Positions 1,153 through 26,330 of a stretch of DNA of 64,000 nt are shown piece after piece. The stretch is taken from positions 54,109,365-54,173,364 of the forward strand of contig OY294047.1 of NCBI GenBank assembly GCA_958510825.1, read 5' to 3'. The translations under genes and the position numbers were made by a program. How positions within the stretch are numbered: the stretch's first letter is position 1; the number at the start of each line of letters is the position of its first letter. The notes under the pieces are model-generated. The model was not told the DNA's origin and did no database searches. It worked only from the letters and a program-made list of their open reading frames with translations. The DNA comes from Brachypterus glaber. Lineage: Eukaryota; Arthropoda; Insecta; Coleoptera; Kateretidae.

Positions 1153-1294
1153 TTTGAAAAAAAAATCTGAAATTCAAAATTTCAAGTTAGGGGCGTTTTT
1201 ACCTTTACCACGTTCCACATAATCTAAGCGGCATCGTCGCGTTTTTATTCAACCGTTTGTTTTCGTATTATTTTGTTTTGAATAAATACTCTTA

Positions 1295-1432: not shown

Positions 1433-1458
1433 TTATTCAGTCTGACTAACCGGCACAA

Positions 1459-2475
1459 GTGGGTGTGTCTAAATTATTTTTCCTATTAAAATTATTGGAG
1501 CTTCCACAAAATATTAGTTTTGTAACTGAAACAAAGTTTTTGGGGACCTTCATTGATGCAAATTTAAGTTGGGAACCACACATTGATAGTTTATGTAAAA
1601 AAATAAACAAAGCGTATTTTGCTATACGTCAGCTCAAAAGCTCGCTACACAAACCAGCCATTCTTAATGTATATTACTCACTTGCCTATTCACATATCTC
1701 GTATAACATTTTAGCTTATGGTTCTGCGGTCTCCATTTTAAGAGTTTTTATATTACAAAAGAGACTGATTAGATTAATTTTTAACCTTGACTATAGGGAA
1801 ACATGCAGAGATACCTTTAAATTGAACAAATTGTTAACTGTACCATCAATCTATATTTTAAAATGTGTGCTTTACGTGAAAAATAATTTCTCTAATTTTG
1901 ATCAAAATTGTAAGTGGCACACGTATAATACAAAGAACAAGGACATGTTAATGGTTCCTCGTCATAATACTGCAAAATTTAAAAGATCTCCTTTTTATAA
2001 TTGTCTATCATTATACAATGCTTTACCCAGTCACATTAAAAATATAAATAATGTCAATATATTTAAAAATAGGGTAAAAACAATGTTGATCAATGGATGT
2101 TTTTATGATTTAAATGAGTTTTACTCTTATAATTTTGATGTATAATCTCTAAGCATTTTATTATTTTTATTTTAATTAAATCTATATACTTAGGTATCTA
2201 TGTTTACATATTTGAATTTTATTATTGTACTGTACTAATATAATGTGTAGTGTATAATGTTCAGTGTTTAAGTTTTTTTTTTTTTTTTACTTTTAATTTT
2301 AATTTTTTTCTTAAGCAAGTATGGATTGTTGTACTCTACATCTTATATTTTTTATTTTGTATTATATTTACTTTTTATAAAATTTTACATAAAAGTGTAA
2401 AATAGACCTGACTTGCCATATGTACTTTGTATCAAAATGGTGTTAAATAAATGATTTGATTTGATTTGATTTGAA
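1459..2475 (+). mobile_element. 5'-truncated LINE, reverse transcriptase C-terminal region
   Basis: An open frame at 1459-2145 (228 aa) contains the segment KFLGTFIDANLSWEPHI and a downstream basic, aromatic-rich tail. This is the layout found after the catalytic core of non-LTR reverse transcriptases (Jockey/CR1/RTE-like elements). The YADD catalytic box is missing, so the copy is 5'-truncated and dead. The 3' end at 2455-2475 is a TTGAT-type tandem tail, as LINEs often have. The first 40 or so codons probably come from flanking sequence, because similar bases occur upstream of gene C without the LINE. The clade is uncertain. Confidence 0.75.
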
Positions 2476-2759
2476 TGTTTTAAAATACTTTAACGTCATT
2501 TTACAAACATGATAGGTATTTTTTATAATAATTTGGTATAGTTTGTTATATTCTCTATTGGTACAGAGAGATTTTACCGAGTTATTGTTATCGTTATATG
2601 TTTCAAAAACGTAAAACGAAAAATAGGTTCTTAATTTGAAATTATACTAGAAAAGGTATTATGAAATGTATAAAAATACGTCTAGATGTCCATTGAAGAT
2701 GTGTTTAAAGAATGTTAATGGAGGCAGATGTTAAAGGTGGAAAGAAACTAAAGAATAAT

Positions 2760-3980
2760 AATAAACCATAGAAAAAAATTTTATCTCTCCAAAATATAAA
2801 TTTATTGTCTATTAAACAAACATTACAGCGACAATTGTTTCGACTTTTTTAACATAAAGTCATTTTCAAGCTACAAATAATGAAAAATTAAGTTGAAAAT
2901 GGTACAATTCCTTTTAGAAAAACTTACTTTTTAAATTTATAAACAAATTAACCTGAGTACACATTATTAGAAATGTCATACTGACCTTAACTGTATTATC
3001 TTTATAAAAACTTAAAAATTTAAACAAAAAGAAAACTACAATAAATTAAAATAAAATAAATTAATGAAATCTAAAATTTAAAATTGAATAAAAGTCTGGG
3101 ACATCTATCATAAAATAATCCAAACTATATTTCAAACAGACTAAAGGAATTATCTTTAAACTGCAAGAAAGTAGTTAAATATAAAAAAAAAAAACGAAAA
3201 AGATTAATTTATATTTAACTTGGTAATTGGAATAAAATTGGAGAGGTGGCAGCAAATTCACATCAAAAACTCAAAAACAAACCAAAAAGGGAACAAAATT
3301 TTAGGAACAGTTTTTAAACAAAAATATTTATTCCAAAGATTAATGCTCTGTAAGGGGACAGGCAACAATCTCCGGTCTAACGTTGCCTGTCCCCTTACAG
3401 AGCATTAATCTTTGGAATAAATATTTTTGTTTAAAAACTGTTCCTAAAATTTTGTTCCCTTTTTGGTTTGTTTTTGAGTTTTTGATGTGAATTTGCTGCC
3501 ACCTCTCCAATTTTATTCCAATTACCAAGTTAAATATAAATTAATCTTTTTTTTTTTATATTTAACTACTTTCTTGCAGTTTAAAGATAATTCCTTTAGT
3601 CTGTTTGAAATATAGTTTGGATTATTTTATGATAGATGTCCCAGACTTTTATTCAATTTTAAATTTTAGATTTCATTAATTTATTTTATTTTAATTTATT
3701 GTAGTTTTCTTTTTGTTTAAATTTTTAAGTTTTTATAAAGATAATACAGTTAAGGTCAGTATGAAATTTCTAATAATGTGTACTCAGGTTAATTTGTTTA
3801 TAAATTTAAAAAGTAAGTTTTTCTAAAAGGAATTGTACCATTTTCAACCTAATTTTTCATTATTTGTAGCTTGAAAATGACTTTATGTTAAAAAAGTCGA
3901 AACAATTGTCGCTGTAATGTTTGTTTAATAGACAATAAATTTATATTTTGGAGAGGTAAAAATTTTTTCTATGGTTTATT
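2760..3980. repeat. 1.2-kb near-perfect hairpin (foldback element), copy 1
   Basis: Left arm 2760-3366 and right arm 3382-3980 are reverse complements with very few differences, around a 15-bp centre. The inner ends are GGGGACAGGCAAC and GTTGCCTGTCCCC. Because of the symmetry both strands encode the same spurious 62-codon frame near the centre. Transcription would give an RNA hairpin with a stem of about 600 bp. No transposase is present. Confidence 0.92.
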
Positions 3981-4080
3981 TAAATCAACTCCAATATGAG
4001 TAAGGATCAAGAATTTCTTAATTTAAAGAATAATAAGGTGAAGTTTTCCTAAATTTGCTGTATGGTTATATTTATTATCA

Positions 4081-4200
4081 TTTTCTTTCTCAAAATTAAT
4101 AGAGAGCCTCTAGCACAAGCTTAGGCTTATTTGGGGCTCTCCATGACTTACCGTGTATAGTATCATATAAATAAATAAATAATAAATAAATTTATTATAA
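4081..4200. repeat. Element tail with AAAT-type repeats
   Basis: A short unique-looking stretch (GAGAGCCTCTAGCACAAGC) leads into ATAAATAAATAAATAATAAA at about 4165-4192. This resembles the 3' end of a LINE or SINE. It is repeated at 14821-14940. Confidence 0.35.
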
Positions 4201-4314
4201 ACATATAGATACTCAAAAACTGTTTGGTAAGTAGCAAGCAGTATGCATACTTAGACCTTTAGAGTTTAGAATTTTATAAATTATAATTTAATTATAATAA
4301 ATAATACACATAAT

Positions 4315-4465
4315 CAGGCCTATTCACATGTACCATTGATATTGAGATTTGTGGCAATATTGACGAAAATTGCAAGGTCATTTAAGTCAACTGTATTAAA
4401 ACTGCATGGGATTGTAATTTTTGTCAATATTGAATAGATTTCAATGGTACATGTAAATAGGCCTG
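4315..4465. mobile_element. 151-bp palindromic MITE, copy 1
   Basis: The ends CAGGCCTATTCACATGTACC and GGTACATGTAAATAGGCCTG form an inverted repeat of about 25 bp. The middle holds weakly complementary CAATATTGAC motifs. The second copy at 15055-15205 came with the segmental duplication. Confidence 0.75.
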
Positions 4466-4543
4466 AATAGCATAGCATGTTACTGAAGAACGATGGACAA
4501 CATTTAAATACCTAGTCGTCAGTAGCTGGTGAGATTGTACATA

Positions 4544-5714
4544 CAGGGTGTATTTGAAATAGCGTAGGAAATTTTAACGGGTGATTCTACATGATAAAAT
4601 ATGACAAAAAGTTCCTATAAACATATGTCTAAAAATGCGTCATAAGTGAGCTACGCCCCTTTGAAAGTGGCTAAAAAAATCGGTTTTTATTTAAACTCAG
4701 GAACCCTTTTAGATATATTAACGAGGTTTTGCACGTGAATTAATCCTAATAAGGCCCATCTTTGTATGTCATTTTCACGTACTTATTTAAACCAGGGGTC
4801 TGCGAAACGGGAGGGCCTTATCAGTTTTTTGTCCCAAACTTTTTTCTGTGTAACTTTTTTGCAATTTTATTTTTGAAATATGATTCTTCAGGTCAAAATA
4901 CATAAAAAAGGTACTCTTGTTGTAATACTGTAGGATTAACCGTTTTCGAGAAAAGTTCATTTGAAGGTGAAATTTCACGGTTCGAGGACGAAAAATTAAA
5001 TACTAAAATGTCGAAAACCAAAATTTTAATGATGCAATGTTATTCTACATAAAAAACTAAGAAAAAAGTTTCCATACATGTAGGTCGAAAAAACGCTTTT
5101 AAAGCTAGCATAGCCCTTTAAAAATGGTGCATATTTAGGAGACCATAGCTCCATTAAGGTTGATTTTTGGAAGTACCTGTATATGAGGTTTTTTTCTTAA
5201 TTTTTAATGTACATTCGCCCTGCATCATTAAAATTTTGGTTTACAACATTTTAGTATTTAATTTTTCGTCCTCGAACCGTGGAATTTCACCTTCAAATGA
5301 ATTTTTCTCGAAAACGGTTAATCTTACAGTATTACAACAAGAGTAGCTTTTTTATGTATTTTGACCTGAGAAATCATATTTTAAAAATAAAATTGCAAAA
5401 AAGTTACACAGAAAAAAGTTTGGGACAAAAAACTGATAAGCCCCCCCGTTTCGCACACCCCTGGTTGAAATAAGTACATGAAAATAACACATAAAAACGG
5501 GCCTTGGTAGGATTAGTTGATGTGCAAAACCTCGTTGATATATCTCAAAGGGTTCCTGAGTTATTAAATAAAAACCGATTTTTTTAGCCACTTTTAAAGG
5601 GGCGTAGCTCCCATATGACGCATTTTTAGACATATGTTTATAGGAACTTTTTGTCATATTTTATGATGTAGAATCATCTGTTAAAATTTCCTACGCTATT
5701 TCAAATACACCGTG
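4544..5714. mobile_element. 1.17-kb foldback element, copy 1
   Basis: Two arms of roughly 550 bp are inverted copies of each other. The ends are CAGGGTGTATTTGAAAT and ATTTCAAATACACCGTG, flanked by TA at 4542-4543 and 5715-5716. TA flanks suggest a Tc1/mariner-type insertion, but no transposase is present. Short frames inside (for example around the motif NFSRKRLILQYYNKS) appear in both arms and are by-products of the symmetry. Other copies are at 15284-16453 and 49669-50842. Confidence 0.82.
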
Positions 5715-7306: not shown

Positions 7307-7307
7307 T

Positions 7308-9130: not shown

Positions 9131-11899
9131 CTAGCTGTCGCTTTCTGATGATAATTGTTTATCTGCGTGTGTGTTTTTCTTATGTGAGTATAAACCAGAT
9201 CTCGAAGAAAACTTAATTTTACAAATATGACAGGAATATGGCTTAACTCCACTGTGACTTTTAACGTGGGTATATAACGATGAATTAGCAGTAAACGATT
9301 TTTGGCAAATATGACACGAATATGGCTTAGTTCCACTGTGAGTTTTAACGTGAGTCTGCCACCCTGAATAAACAGTAAACGATTTTTGGCAAATGTGACA
9401 AGAATATGGCTTTTCACCGGTGTGTATTCTTTTGTGCAATGTTAAGCTCCATTTCAAAGTAAAAGTTTTCGAACACACATCACACGAATAGGCTTTAATG
9501 TTGGAATGTATAACTTGGTGTCTAGTTAAAGTACATTTGCGACCAAATGATTTTTGACAAACTTCGCAAGTAAACGGTTTTTGATTAGAGTGAGTTTTAA
9601 GGTGCTTATTAAGTCTCGATTTTGTAAAAAATGCTTTTTCACAAACTTGACAAACATTACATTTGTCTAATTTCATGTGTTTTGTTTTAATGTGTTCGGT
9701 TAGACTATATTTTTCTTTATATGATTTTTCACATGCACTACACGTGAATGGTTTTTCGCCTGTATGGCTCATATTGTGTACAATTAACTTATGTTTTTTA
9801 TAAAAAGCTTTGGGGCAATGAGAACAGGTAAATGGCTTGTGGTCTATATGGGTTTTTAAGTGTTCTCTAAGGTAAGGTTTAAACGAAAATGATCTGTCGC
9901 AAATTTTACAAGTAAAGGGTTTTTTAGCTGTATGCACCTGAATGTGTCGGATCAAATCTTGTTTAGAAGCAAACCCCTTTGAGCATGTAGAACACAAATA
10001 CGGTTTTTCAGCATAATGGAACGCCATATGCTTTTTTAAACTTACTTTATAAATAAATTTTTTTAGACAAACATTGCAACTGTAAAGTGTCATACCCAAA
10101 TGGGCCATACTGTGTTTTTTTAAATTAATTTTACTCGTATAAGTTTTTGGACAAACAGAACATGAATACAGTTTGACGCCAGTATGCATGCATGCAGTAT
10201 GCGCATTTAAAAGTTGTTCGGAGCTAAAACTTTCCTTACAAATATGGCAATTATGTGAATTTTCACCTGTGTGTATTAGGTTGTGTTCTAACAAATTCTT
10301 CTCGAGTAAAAATGATTTTGGGCAAACCGAACATCGAAATACCTGATCGTGTGCTCGAACGTGATATTCTAGGGACAGCTTACTAGTGAACGATGTTTGA
10401 CATATATCGCACGTGAATATTTCTTTTTCCGCGTGATTTTCTATATGTTTATTCAATTGATATTTGTGGGGGAAAGATCTATTGCAAATTTTACACGTGG
10501 GCATTTTTCCCATGTGTTTTTTTCGGTGCTCATAAAGCAAGCTTCGACTACTCAATATTTGCTCACAAAAGTTACAAGGATATGGACGCCTTGTATCTGT
10601 ATGTGTTTTTTTAATGTGTTCTGTAAGATACCATTTTATTTTAAACGATTTTTCACATTCACTACATGTATATGGTTTTTTACTTGAATGTGTTTCAATG
10701 TGCTTCCTTAAAAGATACTTTTGTGTAAATGATTTTTGACACTCATGACATTTGTACGGTCTTACGCCCGTGTGTATTCTTAGGTGCAAGTTTAACTTTT
10801 TTTTACTAACAAAGGCTTTTTGACAAACAAAGCACGAAGTTTTAGTGTGCAAAATTTTGTGTGTGTCCAAATCACTTTTAGAGGGAAATAATTTTTCGCG
10901 ATTGTGGATAGCATTTTGCTTTTTGAGATATGTTCTTCTAGAAAATGATCTTTTGCAAATATCACAGGCGCATTTGTGAACCTGTATGTGCGACGCCAGA
11001 GATGTTGTTGTGAAAAACAATTTTTCACAAACAGTGCAAGAAAATTGTTTTTTGACTTGTTCAATTTTAAAACTTCTATCGAGAAAAACGTAAAGTTCCT
11101 TTTCAAATTTTGTGCATTGAACAACTCGGTTTGGTGAAATTTTTGTTTTTTTAAGATATGTTCTTCTTGAAAATGATCTTTTGCAAATATCACAGGCGCA
11201 TTTGTGAACCTGTATGTGCGACGCCAGAGATGTTGTTGTGAAAAACAATTTTTCACAAACAGTGCAAGAAAACTGGTTTTTGACTTGTTCAATTTTGAAA
11301 CTTCTATCGAGAAAAACGTAAAGTTCCTTTTCAAATGTTGTGCGTTGAACAACTCGGTTTGGTGGAGTTTTAGGTTTTTTAATTTGTGAATTTTTCTCAG
11401 TCCTATTTTCTAAAATATCCAATAAGGGTTTACTCTCATTATCTGAACACAGTTCATTTTCTTCTATCTGAATTATACTGCTTTTAATTTCGTCTTCAGA
11501 ATCTACTTTATCATCTTCTATTTTATCTCGACCACTTTCTTTTTCTAAATTAATTGTTTTGGCAACTATTTTATCGGTAATTTCCTCAATTTCAACTATT
11601 ATACTTCTATTTTCATTTTCTAGATCCGATTCAGCTTTTATTTCTTCATTTGGCCAGCCTGTTTTTTCATTTTTTAAATAAAACTCATCATCAATGACCC
11701 TAACTTCTTTAATAATATTGTCTTCAGTGAAATCCATGTTTCCTGCTTCCCTTTTGATTTCAGTATTTTTCCAGGGAGTGGAACTTTCTTCATCTGATTT
11801 TAATTCACCAGAACTACCATCAGCTTCTTGGATTTGGAATTCTTCTTCGTCCTCTTCTTCTGGTTTACCAGATCTTTTAACAGGTTCTTTGTTTGCCAT
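9131..11899 (-). CDS. C2H2 zinc-finger protein B, 922 aa
   Basis: A single open frame runs from ATG at 11899 to a stop at 9131. Residues 1 to about 185 are acidic (runs of Glu and Asp) with no recognised domain; I see no ZAD-type Cys pattern. Two 76-residue modules follow, each with a full finger (CTVC ... HIQVH), a half finger (CDICKRSF without the His pair) and a linker. After a degenerate finger come 20 C2H2 fingers, many joined by TGEKP-like linkers, to a short Ser/Asp tail. The family binds DNA in the nucleus, usually as transcription regulators; the target is not predictable. The shared finger array is near-identical to gene C. No intron is needed in the coding region. Confidence 0.92.
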   Translation of the reverse strand: MANKEPVKRSGKPEEEDEEEFQIQEADGSSGELKSDEESSTPWKNTEIKREAGNMDFTEDNIIKEVRVIDDEFYLKNEKTGWPNEEIKAESDLENENRSIIVEIEEITDKIVAKTINLEKESGRDKIEDDKVDSEDEIKSSIIQIEENELCSDNESKPLLDILENRTEKNSQIKKPKTPPNRVVQRTTFEKELYVFLDRSFKIEQVKNQFSCTVCEKLFFTTTSLASHIQVHKCACDICKRSFSRRTYLKKTKISPNRVVQCTKFEKELYVFLDRSFKIEQVKKQFSCTVCEKLFFTTTSLASHIQVHKCACDICKRSFSRRTYLKKQNAIHNREKLFPSKSDLDTHKILHTKTSCFVCQKAFVSKKKLNLHLRIHTGVRPYKCHECQKSFTQKYLLRKHIETHSSKKPYTCSECEKSFKIKWYLTEHIKKTHTDTRRPYPCNFCEQILSSRSLLYEHRKKHMGKMPTCKICNRSFPHKYQLNKHIENHAEKEIFTCDICQTSFTSKLSLEYHVRAHDQVFRCSVCPKSFLLEKNLLEHNLIHTGENSHNCHICKESFSSEQLLNAHTACMHTGVKLYSCSVCPKTYTSKINLKKHSMAHLGMTLYSCNVCLKKFIYKVSLKKHMAFHYAEKPYLCSTCSKGFASKQDLIRHIQVHTAKKPFTCKICDRSFSFKPYLREHLKTHIDHKPFTCSHCPKAFYKKHKLIVHNMSHTGEKPFTCSACEKSYKEKYSLTEHIKTKHMKLDKCNVCQVCEKAFFTKSRLNKHLKTHSNQKPFTCEVCQKSFGRKCTLTRHQVIHSNIKAYSCDVCSKTFTLKWSLTLHKRIHTGEKPYSCHICQKSFTVYSGWQTHVKTHSGTKPYSCHICQKSFTANSSLYTHVKSHSGVKPYSCHICKIKFSSRSGLYSHKKNTHADKQLSSESDS
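10976..11431 (-). repeat. Two 228-bp coding module repeats in gene B
   Basis: The module start GTGAACCTGTATGTGCGACG occurs at 10976 and 11204. The half finger preceding each start keeps CDIC, unlike gene A. Confidence 0.9.
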
Positions 11900-12041
11900 T
11901 TTGAAAAAAAAATCTGAAATTCAAAATTTCAAGTTAGGGGCGTTTTTACCTTTACCACGTTCCACATAATCTAAGCGGCATCGTCGCGTTTTTATTCAAC
12001 CGTTTGTTTTCGTATTATTTTGTTTTGAATAAATACTCTTA

Positions 12042-12179
12042 GGCCCAGTTTATCAGTGTACAGTTAAAACTTTATCTAAAAGATAAAGTCTCAGTTAAGA
12101 GCAAATTCTGGAATTTGGTTGGAGTTGCTATGGTTATTACGTGTCAGCTTAATTTAGCTGCACTTTGATAAACTCGGCC
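12042..12179. mobile_element. 138-bp TTA-flanked MITE, copy upstream of gene B
   Basis: This is the duplicate of 1295-1432, in the same place relative to the start codon. Confidence 0.75.
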
Positions 12180-12205
12180 TTATTCAGTCTGACTAACCGG
12201 CACAA

Positions 12206-13222
12206 GTGGGTGTGTCTAAATTATTTTTCCTATTAAAATTATTGGAGCTTCCACAAAATATTAGTTTTGTAACTGAAACAAAGTTTTTGGGGACCTTCAT
12301 TGATGCAAATTTAAGTTGGGAACCACACATTGATAGTTTATGTAAAAAAATAAACAAAGCGTATTTTGCTATACGTCAGCTCAAAAGCTCGCTACACAAA
12401 CCAGCCATTCTTAATGTATATTACTCACTTGCCTATTCACATATCTCGTATAACATTTTAGCTTATGGTTCTGCGGTCTCCATTTTAAGAGTTTTTATAT
12501 TACAAAAGAGACTGATTAGATTAATTTTTAACCTTGACTATAGGGAAACATGCAGAGATACCTTTAAATTGAACAAATTGTTAACTGTACCATCAATCTA
12601 TATTTTAAAATGTGTGCTTTACGTGAAAAATAATTTCTCTAATTTTGATCAAAATTGTAAGTGGCACACGTATAATACAAAGAACAAGGACATGTTAATG
12701 GTTCCTCGTCATAATACTGCAAAATTTAAAAGATCTCCTTTTTATAATTGTCTATCATTATACAATGCTTTACCCAGTCACATTAAAAATATAAATAATG
12801 TCAATATATTTAAAAATAGGGTAAAAACAATGTTGATCAATGGATGTTTTTATGATTTAAATGAGTTTTACTCTTATAATTTTGATGTATAATCTCTAAG
12901 CATTTTATTATTTTTATTTTAATTAAATCTATATACTTAGGTATCTATGTTTACATATTTGAATTTTATTATTGTACTGTACTAATATAATGTGTAGTGT
13001 ATAATGTTCAGTGTTTAAGTTTTTTTTTTTTTTTTACTTTTAATTTTAATTTTTTTCTTAAGCAAGTATGGATTGTTGTACTCTACATCTTATATTTTTT
13101 ATTTTGTATTATATTTACTTTTTATAAAATTTTACATAAAAGTGTAAAATAGACCTGACTTGCCATATGTACTTTGTATCAAAATGGTGTTAAATAAATG
13201 ATTTGATTTGATTTGATTTGAA
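12206..13222 (+). mobile_element. 5'-truncated LINE, duplicate copy
   Basis: The 228-codon frame at 12206-12892 is identical in protein to that at 1459-2145, and the 3' TTGAT tail is kept. It was copied as part of the segmental duplication, not by new retrotransposition. Confidence 0.75.
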
Positions 13223-13506
13223 TGTTTTAAAATACTTTAACGTCATTTTACAAACATGATAGGTATTTTTTATAATAATTTGGTATAGTTTGTTATATTC
13301 TCTATTGGTACAGAGAGATTTTACCGAGTTATTGTTATCGTTATATGTTTCAAAAACGTAAAACGAAAAATAGGTTCTTAATTTGAAATTATACTAGAAA
13401 AGGTATTATGAAATGTATAAAAATACGTCTAGATGTCCATTGAAGATGTGTTTAAAGAATGTTAATGGAGGCAGATGTTAAAGGTGGAAAGAAACTAAAG
13501 AATAAT

Positions 13507-14720
13507 AATAAACCATAGAAAAAAATTTTATCTCTCCAAAATATAAATTTATTGTCTATTAAACAAACATTACAGCGACAATTGTTTCGACTTTTTTAAC
13601 ATAAAGTCATTTTCAAGCTACAAATAATGAAAAATTAGGTTGAAAATGGTACAATTCCTTTTAGAAAAACTTACTTTTTAAATTTATAAACAAATTAACC
13701 TGAGTACACATTATTAGAAATGTCATACTGACCTTAACTGTATTATCTTTATAAAAACTTAAAAATTTAAACAAAAAGAAAACTACAATAAATTAAAATA
13801 AAATAAATTAATGAAATCTAAAATTTAAAATTGAATAAAAGTCTGGGACATCTATCATAAAATAATCCAAACTATATTTCAAACAGACTAAAGGAATTAT
13901 CTTTAAACTGCAAGAAAGTAGTTAAATATAAAAAAAAAAAAGATTAATTTATATTTAACTTGGTAATTGAAATAAAATTGGAGAGGTGGCAGCAAATTCA
14001 CATCAAAAACTCAAAAACAAACCAAAAAGGGAACAACATTTTAGGAACAGTTTTTAAACAAAAATATTTATTCCAAAGATTAATGCTCTGTAAGGGGACA
14101 GGCAACAATCTCCGGTCTAACGTTGCCTGTCCCCTTACAGAGCATTAATCTTTGGAATAAATATTTTTGTTTAAAAACTGTTCCTAAAATTTTGTTCCCT
14201 TTTTGGTTTGTTTTTGAGTTTTTGATGTGAATTTGCTGCCACCTCTCCAATTTTATTCCAATTACCAAGTTAAATATAAATTAATCTTTTTTTTTTTATA
14301 TTTAACTACTTTCTTTCAGTTTAAAGATAATTCCTTTAGTCTGTTTGAAATATAGTTTGGATTATTTTATGATAGATGTCCCAGACTTTTATTCAATTTT
14401 AAATTTTAGATTTCATTAATTTATTTTATTTTAATTTATTGTAGTTTTCTTTTTGTTTAAATTTTTAAGTTTTTATAAAGATAATACAGTTAAGGTCAGT
14501 ATGACATTTCTAATAATGTGTACTCAGGTTAATTTGTTTATAAATTTAAAAAGTAAGTTTTTCTAAAAGGAATTGTACCATTTTCAACCTAATTTTTCAT
14601 TATTTGTAGCTTGAAAATGACTTTATGTTAAAAAAGTCGAAACAATTGTCGCTGTAATGTTTGTTTAATAGACAATAAATTTATATTTTGGAGAGGTAAA
14701 AATTTTTTCTATGGTTTATT
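13507..14720. repeat. 1.2-kb near-perfect hairpin, copy 2
   Basis: The arms are 13507-14106 and 14122-14720. The centre matches copy 1. The left arm has lost a few bases in its A-run compared with copy 1, which makes the two arms of this copy slightly more alike there. Confidence 0.92.
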
Positions 14721-15054
14721 TAAATTAACTCCAATATGAGTAGGGATCAAGAATTTCTTAATTTAAAGAATAATAAGGTGAAGTTTTCCTAAATTTGCTG
14801 TATGGTTATATTGATTATCATTTTCTTTCTCAAAATTAATAGAGAGCCTCTAGCACAAGCTTAGGCTTATTTGGGGCTCTCCATGACTTACCGTGTATAG
14901 TATCATATAAATAAATAAATAATAAATAAATTTATTATAAACATATAGATACTCAAAAACTGTTTGGTAAGTAGCAAGCAGTATGCATACTTAGACCTTT
15001 AGAGTTTAGAATTTTATAAATTATAATTTAATTATAATAAATAATACACATAAT

Positions 15055-15205
15055 CAGGCCTATTCACATGTACCATTGATATTGAGATTTGTGGCAATAT
15101 TGACGAAAATTGCAAGGTCATTTAAGTCAACTGTATTAAAACTGCATGGGATTGTAATTTTTGTCAATATTGAATAGATTTCAATGGTACATGTGAATAG
15201 GCCTG
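15055..15205. mobile_element. 151-bp palindromic MITE, copy 2
   Basis: This is the duplicate of 4315-4465. Its right end reads ATGTGAATAGGCCTG, a better match to the left end than in copy 1. Confidence 0.75.
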
Positions 15206-15283
15206 AATAGCATAGCATGTTACTGAAGAACGATGGACAACATTTAAATACCTAGTCGTCAGTAGCTGGTGAGATTGTACATA

Positions 15284-16453
15284 CAGGGTGTATTTGAAAT
15301 AGCGTAGGAAATTTTAACAGGTGATTCTACATGATAAAATATGACAAAAAGTTCCTATAAACATGTCTAAAAATGCGTCATAAGTGAGCTACGCCCCTTT
15401 GAAAGTGGCTAAAAAAATCGGTTTTTATTTAATAACTCAGGAACCCTTTTAGATATATTAACGAGGTTTTGCACGTGAATTAATCCTAATAAGGCCCATC
15501 TTTGTATGTCATTTTCACGTACTTATTTAAACCAGGGGTCTGCGAAACGGGAGGGCCTTATCAGTTTTTTGTCCCAAACTTTTTTCTGTGTAACTTTTTT
15601 GCAATTTTATTTTTGAAATATGATTCTTCAGGTCAAAATACATAAAAAAGGTACTCTTGTTGTAATACTGTAGGATTAACCGTTTTCGAGAAAAGTTCAT
15701 TTGAAGGTGAAATTTCACGGTTCGAGGACGAAAAATTAAATACTAAAATGTCGAAAACCAAAATTTTAATGATGCAATGTTATTCTACATAAAAAACTAA
15801 GAAAAAAGTTTCCATACATGTAGGTCGAAAAAACGCTTTTAAAGCTACCATAGCCCTTTAAAAATGGTGCATATTTAGGAGACCATAGCTCCATTAAGGT
15901 TGATTTTTGGAAGTACCTGTATATGAGGTTTTTTCTTAATTTTTAATGTACATTCGCCCTGCATCATTAAAATTTTGGTTTACAACATTTTAGTATTTAA
16001 TTTTTCGTCCTCGAACCGTGGAATTTCACCTTCAAATGAATTTTTCTCGAAAACGGTTAATCCTACAGTATTACAACAAGAGTAGCTTTTTTATGTATTT
16101 TGACCTGAGAAATCATATTTTAAAAATAAAATTGCAAAAAAGTTACACAGAAAAAAGTTTGGGACAAAAAACTGATAAGCCCCCCCGTTTCGCACACCCC
16201 TGGTTGAAATAAGTACATGAAAATAACACATAAAAACGGGCCTTGGTAGGATTAGTTGATGTGCAAAACCTCGTTGATATATCTCAAAGGGTTCCTGAGT
16301 TATTAAATAAAAACCGATTTTTTTAGCCACTTTTAAAGGGGCGTAGCTCCCATATGACGCATTTTTAGACATATGTTTATAGGAACTTTTTGTCATATTT
16401 TATGATGTAGAATCATCTGTTAAAATTTCCTACGCTATTTCAAATACACCGTG
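15284..16453. mobile_element. 1.17-kb foldback element, copy 2
   Basis: This is the duplicate of 4544-5714, with the same TA flanks and a few substitutions. Confidence 0.82.
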
Positions 16454-16666
16454 TATGTTAAATGATAAGTAGATGAGAGATGAAATTTAGGCATGTGCAT
16501 CAGCTAATATTAATTAGAAATGGCACTAACCTATTTTCGTAACAGTAGGGGGAGATACCCATTAATGGGGCACTTTTCTTTAAACGGCTGCCAAAATTTT
16601 ATTTTTGATCTTCTATACGTATTTTTATTTTAGTTATCATATTTTGAAGTAAAAGAACATAGTCCA

Positions 16667-17072
16667 CACGGAATGAAATTAGTGGGCTCTGCGCTATACA
16701 TTATAAGATATTTGGTAACAGTGGCAAATTATAGGGATTTAAGCTATAGATTATAAGGGACACAATAACTAATAATGTTAAAAATAAATTGGAAACGATT
16801 ATATATATTACAGACACGATTATATTTATTACAGGCACTATTATAAATTTACAGAAATTTTATTATATTATAAAAATTATTAGCACGGACAATAATTAAA
16901 TCTATTTAAGCTATAAATGCCATACTATTTGTTATATTTTATTATTCACTAAACAATTAAAGTATTTCATATAAATTTTTACACTGACTGCCATAATTGT
17001 AAGAGAAAGCCTTGTATTTATATAATAAGCGATTATAATTTGCTTGGTATAGCTATAATTTTTTTTTCCGTG
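16667..17072. mobile_element. 406-bp AT-rich element inserted only in unit II
   Basis: The corresponding site in unit I (near 5925) reads AGTCCAAGTG without interruption. Here it reads AGTCCA, the element, then CAAGTG. The element starts CACGGAA and ends TTCCGTG, a 7-bp inverted repeat, and the filled site implies a 2-bp CA duplication. The inside is AT-rich with no coding frame. The superfamily is unclear. The empty site makes the borders exact. Confidence 0.85.
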
Positions 17073-17817
17073 CAAGTGTTAAACCTGAATAACATTTATT
17101 TTTACCAAAACTAAAAGCATTTTAAGAAAAAACGCAACTTGTCCCATTCAAGAACACGGTATTATTGATTGGGACAAAAACACAAAATTGCTATTAAAGA
17201 TATCATATCGTGAAAATTGCTATTATTATCACTATTACTAATAACAATAAACCTATAACGTCGTTACATAACAAAAAAATTGCTGTTAAAGTGTTACACT
17301 CTTGTTTTTACCTAGAATTTACTTTAAATAATTTGAATTGATTCATGTTTTCTTTTACATCTTAGTTTGTTTTGAGCTCCAACTGTTCCAAATTGTTGTA
17401 TGGGTAATACCCTAGACACTTCTGTCCTTTTAGATTTATTTCTTATTTAAAAGAAATGAATAGTAAAGAAATATGCCATGAAATAGTTGTCCCATTCAAG
17501 GAAGCGAAATTTTTTCCGTTCAAAAATACTAACAATACTAACTTTAATAATATAATTTTACAAGCAGAATCTAGCATTCGAAATTAAACCGCAACAAATT
17601 TTAAATAGCAACGCAACAATTTTATAAATATTATGTTGCTTAGTTTTTTTATTGCACTCTTTATTTGTGCTTGTTTTTAGTAATACTTTAGGAAAACTTG
17701 TAAAAAAAACAAACTTTTTTTGTATTATTTATTTATTTATAATTATATGTGAAATCTTCTTAATAGAACAGTATATAGCAAAAATTTAAATTTAAAAAAA
17801 AACTATATTTCTTCCAA

Positions 17818-17852
17818 CGTTTCGAGTATTATTGTGTACTCTTCTTCAGGGA
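17818..17852 (-). ncRNA. Hammerhead-like motif, duplicate copy
   Basis: Same CTGAAGA, GAGTA/TACTC and GAAAC elements as at 6663-6705. It was copied with the duplication. Confidence 0.33.
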
Positions 17853-18454
17853 GATTAAAAATTACAAAATTATAAATTAAAAATTATAGACATTTGATAA
17901 AATATTATGACAATGTCAAAAAAAGGTATAAAGGTAAAGGTGTGAAAATGTAAAAGATAGTAAGATTTGTATATGTGTATTAAAGAGTGAATTAAAAAAC
18001 AAATAAATATAACAAAAAATGCAATAATTATAAATAAACACTAAAAATACATATGTGCACAAATACATACAATCACATATAACCACATACAATTACATAC
18101 AACTACATGTACATATATACATACATACAAAAAATCATTCACTAATGTCAACATATACAGAAAATTGTACACATATATACTCACAGTATCATTCAATTAT
18201 GCTATTGTACACTGAATTTAAATTTTGAGTATCTGTTCGAAAGTTCAAAGCATTTGGAGTAATTTTTATGTGGATCATTTCCAAAATATTTATAATAAAT
18301 ATTATTCGGGTAATATAACCTTAACCTATAAAATATGTGTTAATTATGATCTTTTGACAATAGATTATCGTAGTTAATAAACATAATTAAAAATAAACAG
18401 TAAGTCTTTAACAATATTTAAATTTATAAAAGTACATAAGTTTAAAAATATATT

Positions 18455-18790
18455 TATCCAATACATACAGATAATGAGACAATTACCAGCTTTATTTTAA
18501 ATAGATAAACTCAATAATATCCCCCGCGTGGCTTTTACTTTATTGAGTGGATAATTAATTTATTTTACCCACTCAACTGACACTTGTCAATTTATTTTCT
18601 TGTAAATGTCATTAAAATTTTTAATAAAAATATAAATTCCTAAGCTATTTATTGGATAAAACCTTGTATGGCACTCATGGGTAAGCCGATATTGCCCTCT
18701 CGAAAATTAACATGCTTGGCTGACGCCCCGCTGGTTAATTTTCTCATGGGCAATATCTTACATTACCCACTAGTACCATAAATAACTATT
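18455..18790 (+). mobile_element. 335-bp repeat family, copy 2
   Basis: This is the segmental duplicate of 7308-7644, with minor substitutions. Confidence 0.8.
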
Positions 18791-20266
18791 ATCCAATTCC
18801 TTATTATAAGTCCCCGTTTACTTCATTTATTTTAAATAAGTAAACTAACTGTTTTTCTTTTGTTATTACTTTACCCTACGTTGCTATAGGCAACGGGGTA
18901 AAAAATAGTAACTCACTCGTTTGGAGAAATATAATTGAAAAAGCTACTAAAATAAATATCTATAAAGAAACTTTAAACTATGACCGTCCTAGTCATAGTA
19001 TAACGTCTAAATTTTGTAAAATGTTATATAATCTATTAAAAAAAAATATTTTCAGCAGAATAAACAGGCGCTAGATAAAACAATGTATGGTACACGTGAG
19101 TTAAGTGACATTACCCACTCAGTCCTAGCGTGACTCGTCAATTCTTCTTGTGGGTAATATCACATTTTTCTCACTTATACCGTAAAAGAACTATTATTAT
19201 AATTATAATATAAAAAATAAGTTAATAAGATGAATACATTTCTGGAATAAAAACTAATTAAAAAGAATTAAAACATCTAATTTTCATCCTTTCAACCAAT
19301 GGCATTTAATTTACAGCAACAAAAGAAACAGTTTTTTTTTACTAAGGCTTTTCTCAGGGGAAAGTAAAATAAAAACGTTGCTATTGAAGCTACAATGCAA
19401 AAACATAATTAAAATGCGGATTTATTCAACGTAGGTGTGCGCGCGTTGGTAAATCATAATTATCGGCGGCGGCGAGGTCACTCACGCCGATCAACTTTAA
19501 TCGGCGGCGCAAAATATGTCGGCGTCGCGCTTTCTAGTGCGGTTTTTCTCGAAGCGGCTCATTTAACGCTGAAAACGACCATCCCCATTAAAACGCTACG
19601 CTACGTTTATGACAAAGAACTTTTACCACAAGAAGTAATTTCAGACCAATTTTTATGAAGTTGTCATCTTTTTTTTGTTTATTTACTAACAGAAACGCGA
19701 TACAGCTTTCTGGTGTAAAATGTAGTCGACTTTCAGGCTACCTAGTAGCGATGTTGCGTAGTTTCCACCTTATCATGAATTTAAATCATTATACTTAAAT
19801 TAAAAATGTAAAAAACTGTACTGTGTATACTATAATTATGTTTAATAATATAGTATATTTAAATCTATTAAAATTAAACTACTAGTTCATATAAAACAGT
19901 ACAGAACTAATGTTTCTTAAAATTTACAATAAAATATCCAAAGTATATGTTTCCAATCGGCAACACTGTACCCCTGTCAGTCATTTTACGAGATTAGACT
20001 GTGTGTTTACACATTCTTTCTCTCTCTTTACGCGTACTAAGTGTAAACAATAGTCACTCCCCACCAGCCCCTCACCGTAGTTGGTTCACGCTTCAAACAA
20101 AGCATACGGTAGATTTTATCATGCTCCTTCTTGAGTTAAAAGTTCTTCGGTCTATGATTACACGTCGCGACGCGTCGGGAGGTAGCGATTATTCGAAAGT
20201 TTTAGTTGATCTATTTCAGCGACATAAATAAGTTTCTTTGTCAAAGCAGAGCTCAGTCATGAATCG
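18791..20266. other. Duplicate of 7645-9130: hairpins, CpG-rich block, 3' flank of gene C
   Basis: It contains the same hairpins, the CpG-rich block at about 19397-19667 with its 73-codon frame (19437-19658), and the probable 3' UTR of gene C. One 8-bp stretch present near 8582 is missing near 19725. Confidence 0.6.
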
Positions 20267-23200
20267 CTAGCTGTCGCTTTCTGATGATAATTGTTTATCT
20301 GCGTGTGTGTTTTTCTTATGTGAGTATAAACCAGATCTCGAAGAAAACTTAATTTTACAAATATGACAGGAATATGGCTTAACTCCACTGTGACTTTTAA
20401 CGTGGGTATATAACGATGAATTAGCAGTAAACGATTTTTGGCAAATATGACACGAATATGGCTTAGTTCCACTGTGAGTTTTAACGTGAGTCTGCCACCC
20501 TGAATAAACAGTAAACGATTTTTGGCAAATGTGACAAGAATATGGCTTTTCACCGGTGTGTATTCTTTTGTGCAATGTTAAGCTCCATTTCAAAGTAAAA
20601 GTTTTCGAACACACATCACACGAATAGGCTTTAATGTTGGAATGTATAACTTGGTGTCTAGTTAAAGTACATTTGCGACCAAATGATTTTTGACAAACTT
20701 CGCAAGTAAACGGTTTTTGATTAGAGTGAGTTTTAAGGTGCTTATTAAGTCTCGATTTTGTAAAAAATGCTTTTTCACAAACTTGACAAACATTACATTT
20801 GTCTAATTTCATGTGTTTTGTTTTAATGTGTTCGGTTAGACTATATTTTTCTTTATATGATTTTTCACATGCACTACACGTGAATGGTTTTTCGCCTGTA
20901 TGGCTCATATTGTGTACAATTAACTTATGTTTTTTATAAAAAGCTTTGGGGCAATGAGAACAGGTAAATGGCTTGTGGTCTATATGGGTTTTTAAGTGTT
21001 CTCTAAGGTAAGGTTTAAACGAAAATGATCTGTCGCAAATTTTACAAGTAAAGGGTTTTTTAGCTGTATGCACCTGAATGTGTCGGATCAAATCTTGTTT
21101 AGAAGCAAACCCCTTTGAGCATGTAGAACACAAATACGGTTTTTCAGCATAATGGAACGCCATATGCTTTTTTAAACTTACTTTATAAATAAATTTTTTT
21201 AGACAAACATTGCAACTGTAAAGTGTCATACCCAAATGGGCCATACTGTGTTTTTTTAAATTAATTTTACTCGTATAAGTTTTTGGACAAACAGAACATG
21301 AATACAGTTTGACGCCAGTATGCATGCATGCAGTATGCGCATTTAAAAGTTGTTCGGAGCTAAAACTTTCCTTACAAATATGGCAATTATGTGAATTTTC
21401 ACCTGTGTGTATTAGGTTGTGTTCTAACAAATTCTTCTCGAGTAAAAATGATTTTGGGCAAACCGAACATCGAAATACCTGATCGTGTGCTCGAACGTGA
21501 TATTCTAGGGACAGCTTACTAGTGAACGATGTTTGACATATATCGCACGTGAATATTTCTTTTTCCGCGTGATTTTCTATATGTTTATTCAATTGATATT
21601 TGTGGGGGAAAGATCTATTGCAAATTTTACACGTGGGCATTTTTCCCATGTGTTTTTTTCGGTGCTCATAAAGCAAGCTTCGACTACTCAATATTTGCTC
21701 ACAAAAGTTACAAGGATATGGACGCCTTGTATCTGTATGTGTTTTTTTAATGTGTTCTGTAAGATACCATTTTATTTTAAACGATTTTTCACATTCACTA
21801 CATGTATATGGTTTTTTACTTGAATGTGTTTCAATGTGCTTCCTTAAAAGATACTTTTGTGTAAATGATTTTTGACACTCATGACATTTGTACGGTCTTA
21901 CGCCCGTGTGTATTCTTAGGTGCAAGTTTAACTTTTTTTTACTAACAAAGGCTTTTTGACAAACAAAGCACGAAGTTTTAGTGTGCAAAATTTTGTGTGT
22001 GTCCAAATCACTTTTAGAGGGAAATAATTTTTCGCGATTGTGGATAGCATTTTGCTTTTTGAGATATGTTCTTCTAGAAAATGATCTTTTGCAAATATCA
22101 CAGGCGCATTTGTGAACCTGTATGTGCGACGCCAGAGATGTTGTTGTGAAAAACAATTTTTCACAAACAGTGCAAGAAAATTGTTTTTTGACTTGTTCAA
22201 TTTTAAAACTTCTATCGAGAAAAACGTAAAGTTCCTTTTCAAATTTTGTGCATTGAACAACTCGGTTTGGTGAAATTTTTGTTTTTTTAAGATATGTTCT
22301 TCTTGAAAATGATCTTTTGCAAATATCACAGGCGCATTTGTGAACCTGTATGTGCGACGCCAGAGATGTTGTTGTGAAAAACAATTTTTCACAAACAGTG
22401 CAAGAAAATTGTTTTTTGACTTGTTCAATTTTAAAACTTCTATCGAGAAAAACGTAAAGTTCCTTTTCAAATTTTGTGCATTGAACAACTCGGTTTGGTG
22501 AAATTTTTGTTTTTTTAAGATATGTTCTTCTTGAAAATGATCTTTTGCAAATATCACAGGCGCATTTGTGAACCTGTATGTGCGACGCCAGAGATGTTGC
22601 TGTGAAAAACAATTTTTCACAAACAGTGCAAGAAAATTGTTTTTTGACTTGTTCAATTTTAAAACTTTTATCGAGAAAAACGTAAAGTTCCTTTTCAAAT
22701 TTTGTGCATTGAACAACTCGGTTTGGTGAAATTTTTGTTTTTTTAAGATATGTTCTTCTTGAAAATGATCTTTTGCAAATATCACAGGCGCATTTGTGAA
22801 CCTGTATGTGCGACGCTAGAGATGTTGCTGTGAAAAACAATTTTTCACAAACAGTGCAAGAAAATTGTTTTTTGACTTGTTCAATTTTAAAACTTTTATC
22901 GAGAAAAACGTAAAGTTCCTTTTCAAATTTTGTGCATTGAACAACTCGGTTTGGTGAAATTTTTGTTTTTTTAAGATATGTTCTTCTTGAAAATGATCTT
23001 TTGCAAATATCACAGGCGCATTTGTGAACCTGTATGTGCGACGCTAGAGATGTTGCTGTGAAAAACAATTTTTCACAAACAGTGCAAGAAAACTGGTTTT
23101 TGACTTGTTCAATTTTGAAACTTCTATCGAGAAAAACGTAAAGTTCCTTTTCAAATGTTGTGCGTTGAACAACTCGGTTTGGTGGAGTTTTAGGTTTTTT

Positions 23201-23716
23201 AATTTGTGAATTTTTCTCAGTTCTATTTTCTGAAATATCCAATAAGGGTTTACTCTCATTATCTGAACACAGTTCATTTTCTTCTATCTGAATTATACTG
23301 CTTTTAATTTCGTCTTCAGAATCTACTTTATCATCTTCTATTTTATCTCGACCACTTTCTTTTTCTAAATTAATTGTTTTGGCAACTATTTTATCGGTAA
23401 TTTCCTCAATTTCAACTATTATACTTCTATTTTCATTTTCTAGATCCGATTCAGCTTTTATTTCTTCATTTGGCCAGCCTGTTTTTTCATTTTTTAAATA
23501 AAACTCATCATCAATGACCCTAACTTCTTTAATAATATTGTCTTCAGTGAAATCCATGTTTCCTGCTTCCCTTTTGATTTCAGTATTTTTCCAGGGAGTG
23601 GAACTTTCTTCATCTGATTTTAATTCACCAGAACTACCATCAGCTTCTTGGATTTGCAATTCTTTTTCTTCTTCTTCTGGTTTACCAGATTTTTTAACAG
23701 ATTCTTTGTTTACCAT
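20267..23716 (-). CDS. C2H2 zinc-finger protein C, 1149 aa
   Basis: A single open frame from ATG at 23716 to a stop at 20267. The layout follows gene B: acidic N-terminal region, then 76-residue modules, a degenerate finger and 20 C2H2 fingers. Here there are five modules, three more than B, and this accounts for the 227-residue length difference. The first 22 or so residues differ from A and B (for example MVNKESVKKS against MANKEPVKRS), while nearly everything after is the same. Upstream DNA is also clearly diverged from A and B, so its promoter is probably distinct. It is a presumed nuclear DNA-binding regulator with unknown target. Confidence 0.92.
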   Translation of the reverse strand: MVNKESVKKSGKPEEEEKELQIQEADGSSGELKSDEESSTPWKNTEIKREAGNMDFTEDNIIKEVRVIDDEFYLKNEKTGWPNEEIKAESDLENENRSIIVEIEEITDKIVAKTINLEKESGRDKIEDDKVDSEDEIKSSIIQIEENELCSDNESKPLLDISENRTEKNSQIKKPKTPPNRVVQRTTFEKELYVFLDRSFKIEQVKNQFSCTVCEKLFFTATSLASHIQVHKCACDICKRSFSRRTYLKKTKISPNRVVQCTKFEKELYVFLDKSFKIEQVKKQFSCTVCEKLFFTATSLASHIQVHKCACDICKRSFSRRTYLKKTKISPNRVVQCTKFEKELYVFLDKSFKIEQVKKQFSCTVCEKLFFTATSLASHIQVHKCACDICKRSFSRRTYLKKTKISPNRVVQCTKFEKELYVFLDRSFKIEQVKKQFSCTVCEKLFFTTTSLASHIQVHKCACDICKRSFSRRTYLKKTKISPNRVVQCTKFEKELYVFLDRSFKIEQVKKQFSCTVCEKLFFTTTSLASHIQVHKCACDICKRSFSRRTYLKKQNAIHNREKLFPSKSDLDTHKILHTKTSCFVCQKAFVSKKKLNLHLRIHTGVRPYKCHECQKSFTQKYLLRKHIETHSSKKPYTCSECEKSFKIKWYLTEHIKKTHTDTRRPYPCNFCEQILSSRSLLYEHRKKHMGKMPTCKICNRSFPHKYQLNKHIENHAEKEIFTCDICQTSFTSKLSLEYHVRAHDQVFRCSVCPKSFLLEKNLLEHNLIHTGENSHNCHICKESFSSEQLLNAHTACMHTGVKLYSCSVCPKTYTSKINLKKHSMAHLGMTLYSCNVCLKKFIYKVSLKKHMAFHYAEKPYLCSTCSKGFASKQDLIRHIQVHTAKKPFTCKICDRSFSFKPYLREHLKTHIDHKPFTCSHCPKAFYKKHKLIVHNMSHTGEKPFTCSACEKSYKEKYSLTEHIKTKHMKLDKCNVCQVCEKAFFTKSRLNKHLKTHSNQKPFTCEVCQKSFGRKCTLTRHQVIHSNIKAYSCDVCSKTFTLKWSLTLHKRIHTGEKPYSCHICQKSFTVYSGWQTHVKTHSGTKPYSCHICQKSFTANSSLYTHVKSHSGVKPYSCHICKIKFSSRSGLYSHKKNTHADKQLSSESDS
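22112..23251 (-). repeat. Five 228-bp coding module repeats in gene C
   Basis: Module starts are at 22112, 22340, 22568, 22796 and 23024. Neighbouring units differ by a few substitutions (DR or DK in the linker, TTTS or TATS in the finger). This fits recent unequal exchange or replication slippage. Confidence 0.92.
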
Positions 23717-24459: not shown

Positions 24460-24639
24460 TAACTGTCAGAAGAGTGTGTATCAAAATTATATTGCCTATT
24501 TAAATTTTTGGGGCTAGTGGAATTTTATAATAATTGGGTATATTTTGTTATATTCTCTATTGGTACAGAGAGATTTTAAAAATAGGTTCTTAATTTGAAA
24601 TTAGACAAGAAATTTAATCTTTAAATTAAAGATGACTTA

Positions 24640-26330
24640 CTAGAAAAAGCTTTCTTACAAATATGGACTTTTTAATATTTTATCACAAATGTCGCAGAGA
24701 TACGAACGCCTTTTAATACGTTGTGCAAGATATCTTTTTGTTTTATTGAATTTTCACATTCACTACACGTATATGGTTTTTTGATTGAATGTGTTTTAAT
24801 GTGCGTGCTTAAAAAATCTTTTTTTTTTAATGATTTTTGACACTCGCCACATTTATACGGGCGTATGTTCGTATGTCAACGTTAATTTTTGTTCACTAAC
24901 AAAGACTTTTTGGCAAACAAAGCACGAAGCTTTAGTGTGCACAATTTTGTGTGTATCTAAATTACTTTTAGGGGAAAATATTTTTTACATTTATACAGAG
25001 CGGTCCAAAAGTCACCCCCCTTTTAACTTTTGAACGAATTGAGATATCGACTTCAAATTTAGAACTCTTAAATAAGACAACTTAAACTATCTTTTAGCAT
25101 ATATTTAATACTTTCAGCTCTTAAAATGTGGGCAGGGGGCATGGGGGCACATTTTTTTAAATGGAAAGGGGGTCGTGTAATACATCATTTTAAAGATTAT
25201 AAAATTCTCCATTTAACTCCATATTTTTAAATTAAAAAAAAAAAAATTGGGTTTAAAATGGTGTTGAAAATGGGTATTAATGTCAAAATTCCTCTAAAAA
25301 AAACAAATAATTTTTTAAAAATGCCTAATTTCATCTTAAAAAAATGTTAATTATACTTTTAAACTAATTTTAGTTGACATAAATAAAAATTTATAAAAAA
25401 AAAACTTAAAAAATCGAATGTTTTAGCACAAAAAATTGAAAAATTAGAACCTTAAAAAACATTTTTTAAAAATTTAAAAATGTTAGTTTAAATAGAGAAT
25501 TTTATAAGCTTTAAAATGATGTATCACACGACCCCCTTTGCATTTAAAAAAATGTCCCCCCATGCCCCCCTGCCCACATTTTAAGAGCTGAAAATATCAA
25601 ATATATGCTAAAAGATAGTTTAAGTTGTCTTATTTAAGAGTTCTAAATTTGAAGTCGATATCTCAATTCGTTCAAAAGTTAAAAGGGGGAGACTTTTGGA
25701 CCGCACTGTATGTTTTAACGCTCGTTTTAACGCGATTGTGCTTCGAAAGATATTCGCTTCCCAAAAAAATTATTTTTTGTGCGACGCCAGAAATGTTGCT
25801 GCGAAAAACAATTTTTCACAAATGGTGCAAGAAAACTGTTTTCTGCCTGGTTCAATTTTAAAACATCTATAAAAAAACAAAGTTCTTTTTCAAATTTTGT
25901 GCCAGATTTTTGGTTTTTTAATTTGTGAATTTTTCTTCATTATATTTTCTGAAATGTTCACACTTCATTTTCTTCTATTTCGTTTTTACTGCTTTTATTT
26001 TCGTCTTCAGAATTTACTCCATCTTCTATTTTATTTTTAGCCCTTTCATTTTTTAAATACACTGTTTTACCGTTTATTTTATCGGTAATTTCTTCTACTT
26101 CATTTATTAAACTTCTATTTTCGTTTTCCAAATACAATTCAGTTTTTATTTCTTCATTATCAGTCAGATTTTCTTCATTGAAAAAAATATTTGTTTCTTC
26201 AGTTTTGATTTCACAGTTTTCCCAACTGGGAGTGAAACTTTCTTCATCTGATATTAAGTTATCCATTTCTTCTTGCATTTTTTCTTCTAAAGGTCTTTTT
26301 AATAACAGGTATATTTTCTTGGATTGCCAT
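24640..26330 (-). pseudogene. Decayed zinc-finger gene D
   Basis: Read on the minus strand, an ATG at 26330 aligns with the starts of A-C but soon reaches a stop. The acidic N-terminal region continues in another frame (25958-26278), so there is a frameshift near an A-run. One module (about 25780-25900) and remnants of the first four C-terminal fingers (24640-24980) can be recognised. The other 16 or so fingers are gone, and a MITE interrupts the finger region. This is a fourth, older member of the cluster with the ancestral single module. Many stops exclude a functional protein. Confidence 0.82.
24996..25709. mobile_element. 714-bp TA-flanked foldback in pseudogene D
   Basis: The ends CAGAGCGGTCCAAAAGT and CTTTTGGACCGCACTG are inverted, with arms of over 300 bp and TA on both sides. 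This resembles a mariner-type MITE. Fragments of the family are at 29870-29990 and 36395-36792. Confidence 0.8.

What the first reader, a model, noticed from the sequence alone, without database searches (positions are those of the whole stretch)
10976..23251. Copy number of a 76-residue finger module differs among neighbours
D has one, B two, A at least three, C five modules of exactly 228 bp, while the 20 C-terminal fingers of B and C stay the same. The period is a multiple of three, so each change adds or removes one finger, a half finger and a linker without frameshift. This is a coding minisatellite that can quickly change DNA-binding or spacing.
Basis: seen in the sequence. Interest (0 to 1): 0.75.

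Follow-up and report, generated by a model that had tools for sequence, protein, structure and literature searches.

The report
Zinc-finger genes with varying repeated module
Three neighbouring zinc-finger genes, probably of a beetle, carry six, two and five copies of the same 76-residue block, and the two-copy gene reads as an exact splice of its two neighbours, so the block looks like a place where these genes recombine and change length.

Summary
Three near-identical minus-strand poly-C2H2 genes lie in tandem. A, B and C carry 6, 2 and 5 in-frame modules of exactly 228 bp, each array followed by 20 C2H2 fingers. A runs off the window; its rest was read from the same assembly. D is a decayed relic with one partial module. 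A DNA search of the 648-Mb assembly listed these 13 modules plus D's fragment and nothing else.

Best explanation: unequal recombination (crossover or conversion) between paralogues inside the module array. B's whole 2,769-bp coding sequence equals A up to module 1 joined to C from module 4, with 0 mismatches; other single joins tried leave 2 to 5. B's 3' flank does not fit one simple crossover.

"Quickly changes DNA-binding" is not supported: all 13 module fingers have the same predicted contact residues, so copy number can change dose, spacing or length only. Speed and polymorphism were not testable here. A 200-N gap cuts the cluster beyond A, so gene number is a minimum.

Kind: insect poly-zinc-finger cluster with an unusual composite repeat unit. 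Interest moderate.

The parts
1..1152 (-). Gene A, 5' part of the coding sequence (ATG at 1152). It runs off the window; the stop lies at G000:C10:54106836, 1,226 aa in all.
1..615 (-). Modules A1 (388-615), A2 (160-387) and the first part of A3 (1-159); A3 to A6 continue left of the window
9131..11899 (-). Gene B, 922 aa, 2 modules and 20 further C2H2 fingers
10907..11362 (-). Modules B1 (11135-11362) and B2 (10907-11134)
11236..11273 (-). Interval in module B1 (positions 90 to 127) where B changes from A-like to C-like sequence
9131..10918 (-). C-terminal finger part of B; identical to that of C, 2 of 1,788 bp different from A
20267..23716 (-). Gene C, 1,149 aa, 5 modules and 20 further C2H2 fingers
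22043..23182 (-). Modules C5 (22043-22270), C4 (22271-22498), C3 (22499-22726), C2 (22727-22954), C1 (22955-23182)
20267..22054 (-). C-terminal finger part of C
24600..26330 (-). D: decayed relic of a related gene, one partial module at 25778-25902, interrupted by an insertion with inverted ends (24993-25711)
1276..5295 (.). Spacer between the units of A and B; matches 12023-16034
12023..16034 (.). Spacer between the units of B and C
16665..17072 (.). 408-bp segment in the 3' flank of C, present in the 3' flank of A, absent from the 3' flank of B

Best explanation
A small tandem cluster of poly-C2H2 zinc-finger genes carries a 228-bp coding tandem repeat in its N-terminal part. The repeat was probably born when a stretch holding one finger and the first half of the next finger was duplicated at an A-rich junction, which left the second finger without its histidines. 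The repeated modules let the paralogues pair out of register; crossover or conversion inside the array changes module number in frame and makes hybrid genes. B is such a hybrid: N-terminal half as in A, C-terminal half as in C, joined in module 1 of A and module 4 of C, which leaves two modules. The proteins presumably bind DNA through the 20 C-terminal fingers. The modules add identical fingers with long non-canonical spacers, so copy number most likely alters length, spacing or avidity and may be nearly neutral. Shown: modules, their numbers, the mosaic, the identical contact residues. Inferred: the recombination mechanism and its direction, the birth of the repeat, DNA binding, near-neutrality.
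For: B's coding sequence equals A (to module 1) plus C (from module 4) with 0 mismatches in 2,769 bp (join tested at position 110, limits 90-127). Other joins: A module 2 to C module 5, 4 mismatches; best contraction of A alone, 3; best contraction of C alone, 2, and best C-front/A-back, 5, the last two with the first codons, where C differs, left out. A and B show 0 differences over 663 coding bp plus 1,738 flanking bp where 9.3 are expected from the rest of the alignment. The 24 substitution sites outside the modules form 5 runs by which pair agrees, against a mean of 14.9 in shuffles (0 of 100,000 as few, sites). Six of 13 modules are exact chimeras of two other modules, six more are identical to another module. 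Entry, internal and exit junctions share an A-rich tract.
Against: One crossover should give B the 3' flank of C, but B differs there at 13 private sites and 5 indels, and lacks the 408-bp segment that A and C share, so a conversion tract or a later A/C exchange is needed. A's finger part differs from B and C by only 2 of 1,788 bp, so the C-like half of B rests on few marks (two there, plus the marks in the module). Four-gamete and chimera results can also come from repeated mutation. No outgroup roots A, B and C. No expression, binding or population data.
Confidence: 0.7

Rival explanations
1. Assembly artefact: B, or the module numbers, were produced by mis-joined reads or mixed haplotypes in a nearly identical tandem array.
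For: B's coding sequence is an exact splice of its neighbours, as a false join would be; the cluster ends in a 200-N gap left of A.
Against: Both flanks of B are distinct from those of A and C: 24 substitutions and several indels between the two intergenic regions, 13 private sites in B's 3' flank.
Confidence: 0.17
2. Module numbers changed by slippage or contraction inside each gene alone, without exchange between genes.
For: Adjacent modules share private marks: serine 60 in A1, A2, A3 and A5; the 138A mark in C1 and C2.
Against: No contraction of A alone (best 3 mismatches) or C alone (best 2, first codons left out) gives B, while an A/C join gives 0.
Confidence: 0.13
3. Selected module number (compatible with the best explanation): the count tunes a protein contact or the reach of the finger array, and the genes were kept for their different counts.
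For: Frames of A, B and C are intact; the four zinc ligands of the finger are intact in 13 of 13 modules.
Against: Replacement and silent changes in the module (6 and 4) do not differ from neutral, p = 0.11 on few sites; the half finger loses a cysteine in 4 of 6 A modules; the copies are too young for intactness to say much.
Confidence: 0.15

Closest known systems
Insect ZF271-like (APEZ) poly-C2H2 clusters of Oncopeltus and pea aphid (PMC6444547, passages read)
   Same: Tandem clusters of recent copies, many C2H2 fingers and no other Pfam domain, pseudogenes, differing repeat numbers
   Different: Here the number of ordinary fingers is constant (20) and a 76-residue composite module varies; orthology was not tested
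Prdm9 zinc-finger array, a coding minisatellite (PMC3890296, passages read)
   Same: In-frame coding repeat that holds a zinc finger, differing copy number, modules shuffled among copies
   Different: In Prdm9 the repeat is the zinc-finger array itself and diversity is mostly at contact positions -1, 3 and 6; here the unit is 228 bp with long spacers, contact residues are constant, variation is among paralogues only, and no SET or KRAB domain is found
Mammalian KRAB and other poly-ZF clusters (PMC5363842 and PMC2604467, passages read)
   Same: Duplication by unequal crossing over or conversion is invoked; conversion among paralogues is reported
   Different: No KRAB found; what varies is not the main finger array

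Membership tests
Insect ZF271-like (APEZ) poly-C2H2 class | Many tandem C2H2 fingers and no other domain | tested here: met
   Only C2H2-type Pfam families in B and C at E <= 0.001; A has 26, B 22, C 25 motif matches
Insect ZF271-like (APEZ) poly-C2H2 class | Tandem clusters of similar genes with pseudogenes | tested here: met
   Three intact frames and one relic; gene number is a minimum because of the gap
Insect ZF271-like (APEZ) poly-C2H2 class | Placement within the class in a phylogeny | not tested
   No close relative was found; no tree was built
Prdm9-type coding minisatellite | In-frame tandem repeat holding a zinc finger, with differing copy number | tested here: met
   6, 2 and 5 modules of 228 bp among paralogues
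Prdm9-type coding minisatellite | Variation concentrated at DNA-contact positions -1, 3, 6 | tested here: not met
   13 of 13 module fingers carry T,T,S,S at -1, 2, 3, 6
Prdm9-type coding minisatellite | Copy number differs among individuals | not testable with these tools
   One assembly held; no reads
ZAD-ZNF insect transcription factors | N-terminal ZAD domain (PF07776; accession recalled) | tested here: not met
   Not among the Pfam hits of B and C at E <= 0.001; an upstream coding exon is not excluded

The most novel reading that the evidence does not exclude
The coding module array acts as a recombination platform: out-of-register exchange between neighbouring paralogues inside the array both sets module number and swaps N-terminal halves between finger arrays, so that hybrid zinc-finger genes with graded N-terminal reach arise in single steps and are sorted by selection.
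Probability: 0.2. Interest if true: 0.6.

Novelty: new variant of a known kind. Interest (0 to 1): 0.42.

Why it matters
It is a case of a coding repeat that sits outside the main finger array of a poly-zinc-finger gene and coincides with the joint of a hybrid paralogue. If confirmed in reads and populations it gives a tractable system for how insect zinc-finger clusters gain length variants and hybrid genes, and it shows how a duplication joint can freeze a half finger into a protein.

Tried and rejected
Close orthologues: a full-length search with B gave 311 hits, 120 listed, with only the 7,987 candidates sharing most words scored; a search with residues 1-345 gave 23 hits. The listed hits are generic zinc-finger proteins (top: Diabrotica, 29% identity over 65%). 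Of the 120 sequences I printed four in full (P0001, P0004, P0005, P0021) and saw no 76-residue module by eye; a BLAST of the module against the 120 was viewed only in its first 6,000 characters. Absence of the module in other species is therefore not shown.

Structure prediction of residues 170-420 of B without an alignment: mean pLDDT 43.6, so nothing was taken from it.

Other clusters of the same genome: on contig C17 three ORFs have 18 fingers each; on C12 ORFs have 17, 20, 20, 9 and 8 fingers, the last cut by the end of the stretch. C12 shows 84-bp periodicity with 82-87% match; other periods (such as 142, 152 and, on C17, 366 bp) also occur in these stretches, and only the 366-bp one was compared with ORF positions (it lies between ORFs). 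No 228-bp row appears for these 78 kb.

Plain triplication of one unit: rejected, because C's 5' end differs from A/B (28 of 46 bp at -90 to -45, 4 of 46 just before the ATG, 6 of 60 in codons 1-21) and then agrees over 423 bp, and because which pair agrees changes along the unit.

My first expectation that A's finger part would differ from B and C by several percent was wrong: 2 of 1,788 bp.

Copy number of the 408-bp segment, and naming the species by a mitochondrial gene: not answered.
Full report
What is there. The window (GC 31%) lies on a 55-Mb contig of a 648-Mb assembly in 842 contigs. The finger protein's best database hit is from the beetle Diabrotica (29% identity; the next hits come from many animals), and the ORF at 1459-2145, which resembles reverse transcriptases of its hits, has its only two named hits in the beetles Leptinotarsa and Callosobruchus (18 hits). 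A beetle is likely (inference). Three minus-strand genes follow one another: A (ATG at 1152, running off the window), B (11899-9131, 922 aa) and C (23716-20267, 1,149 aa). The left flank of the contig completes A to 1,226 aa without an internal stop. Each has an acidic N-terminal part of 178 or 179 residues, then 76-residue modules, then 20 C2H2 fingers. Pfam finds only C2H2-type families in B and C at E <= 0.001.

The modules. A has 6, B 2 and C 5, each exactly 228 bp. One module as a DNA query listed these 13 and one partial match in D, 14 places in all (that search skips very common words, so it is not proof of absence elsewhere). Over their first 192 bp the 13 modules differ by 3.9 sites on average and 9 at most. 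First modules (A1, B1, C1) share five private marks (positions 19, 26, 66, 87, 90); last modules (A6, B2, C5) are identical to each other and lead into the fingers. A module holds one finger (CTVCEKLFFT(A/T)TSLASHIQVH), then CACDICKRSFSRRTYLKK, the first half of a finger, then a spacer. In the last module the half finger continues as LKKQNAIH, with Q where the first histidine would stand. In the other modules its second half is replaced by TKIS-PNRVV. Entry, internal and exit junctions share an A-rich tract, so the half finger is best explained as the scar of the first duplication (inference).

What copy number can change. The predicted base-contact residues of the module finger (-1, 2, 3, 6; numbering recalled from Zif268) are T, T, S, S in 13 of 13 modules; the one variable finger residue (A/T) is at +1. 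The finger's four zinc ligands are intact in 13 of 13; the half-finger cysteine is serine in 4 of 13, all in A. Silent and replacement changes in the first 64 codons (4 and 6, on 38.3 and 153.7 sites; position 138 counted twice for three states) do not depart significantly from neutrality (Fisher p = 0.11, few sites). More modules mean more of the same finger and more length; new specificity is not indicated.

How the numbers arose. Many pairs of sites inside the module show all four combinations. Six of 13 modules (A4, B1, C1, C2, C3, C4) can be written as exact chimeras of two other modules; six others are identical to another module, and A1 is neither. Repeated mutation could mimic part of this. 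The strongest evidence is at gene level. B's coding sequence equals A from the ATG to module 1 joined to C from module 4 to the stop, 0 mismatches in 2,769 bp (join placed at position 110, limits 90-127). A module 2 joined to C module 5 gives 4 mismatches; the best contraction of A alone 3; the best contraction of C alone 2 and the best C-front/A-back hybrid 5, these two with the first codons, where C differs from B, left out. A and B show no difference over 663 coding bp and 1,738 bp of 5' flank, up to 2890, whereas the rest of that intergenic alignment has 24 substitutions in 6,218 bp, so 9.3 would be expected. B and C agree over the 1,788 bp of fingers; the 3' flank, with 13 differences in 3,835 bp, would predict 6 (coding constraint may explain part). 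Along the unit the agreeing pair changes from A and C (3' flank: 13 sites and 5 indels, one site contrary) to B and C (2 finger sites) to A and B (8 coding sites of the N-terminal part). The 24 substitution sites form 5 runs against 14.9 in shuffles, 0 of 100,000 as few. The modules were left out of this count. The last group is partly an older difference: C's 5' end is about 9% different from A/B from 45 bp before the ATG to codon 21 (10 of 106 bp), more so further upstream (28 of 46 bp), and then identical for 423 bp, itself a sign of exchange.

What does not fit a single step. One crossover would also give B the 3' flank of C. Instead B has 13 private substitutions there and lacks a 408-bp segment that A and C share. 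Read by eye, that segment begins CACGGAA and ends TTCCGTG, like a small transposon, so B probably has the empty site and the A and C flanks share a later ancestor (inference). Either the C-like part of B is a conversion tract that ends near the stop codon, or A and C exchanged their 3' flanks later. The direction cannot be told without an outgroup.

Artefact. The unit left of A ends at a run of 200 N; in the roughly 13 kb beyond it that I fetched no match to the unit longer than 400 bp was found. The cluster may continue in the gap, so three genes is a minimum. A misassembled B cannot be excluded without reads. Against it, both flanks of B are distinct from those of A and C.

It keeps the intron-end-like sequence before the ATG that A, B and C have, so it was copied as DNA, not from RNA (inference). 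One module fits a state before the repeat arose, but decay cannot be excluded.

Comparison with the known. Insect poly-finger clusters with recent tandem copies, pseudogenes and varying finger number are described for Oncopeltus and the pea aphid (PMC6444547, passages). In-frame copy-number change of a finger repeat is known from Prdm9, with diversity mostly at contact positions (PMC3890296, passages). Unequal crossing over and conversion are invoked for KRAB clusters (PMC5363842, passages), and conversion among poly-ZF paralogues is reported (PMC2604467, passages). Six literature searches (listings only) showed no paper whose title or abstract start describes a composite module of this kind, but the library is partial and the species unnamed. 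Two other clusters in this genome show constant or ordinary finger numbers and no 228-bp row. This is a variant of a known kind: the unit that varies is a composite N-terminal module, and it coincides with the joint of a hybrid gene.

Noticed in passing
G000:C12:120001-180000 (L027-L032): Another zinc-finger cluster with two ORFs 98% alike (at 140170 and 165872) and two identical over the 265 aa compared (153866 and 179205), about 25.5 kb apart in each case, which looks like a recent segmental duplication.
   Followed up: no
window 24993-25711: Insertion in relic D with inverted ends of 250 bp (93% alike), like a miniature inverted-repeat transposon.
   Followed up: no
window 16665-17072: 408-bp segment with short inverted ends (read by eye), present in the 3' flanks of A and C and absent from that of B; its copy number in the genome was asked for but not answered.
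   Followed up: partly
window 1459-2145 and 12206-12892: Identical 228-aa ORFs like the end of a retrotransposon reverse transcriptase, one in each spacer.
   Followed up: partly
window 10792-11352 and 21928-22785 (minus strand): A second reading frame through the 228-bp modules is also free of stops; probably chance, since one 76-codon unit is repeated.
   Followed up: no
window 7274-7644, 18443-18790, 28061-28430, 39969-40322, 45486-45695, 47931-48282: Dispersed repeat of about 200-350 bp, 92-97% alike, in both orientations.
   Followed up: no
window -6960 to -6761 (G000:C10:54102404-54102603): Run of 200 N that cuts the zinc-finger cluster left of gene A.
   Followed up: partly
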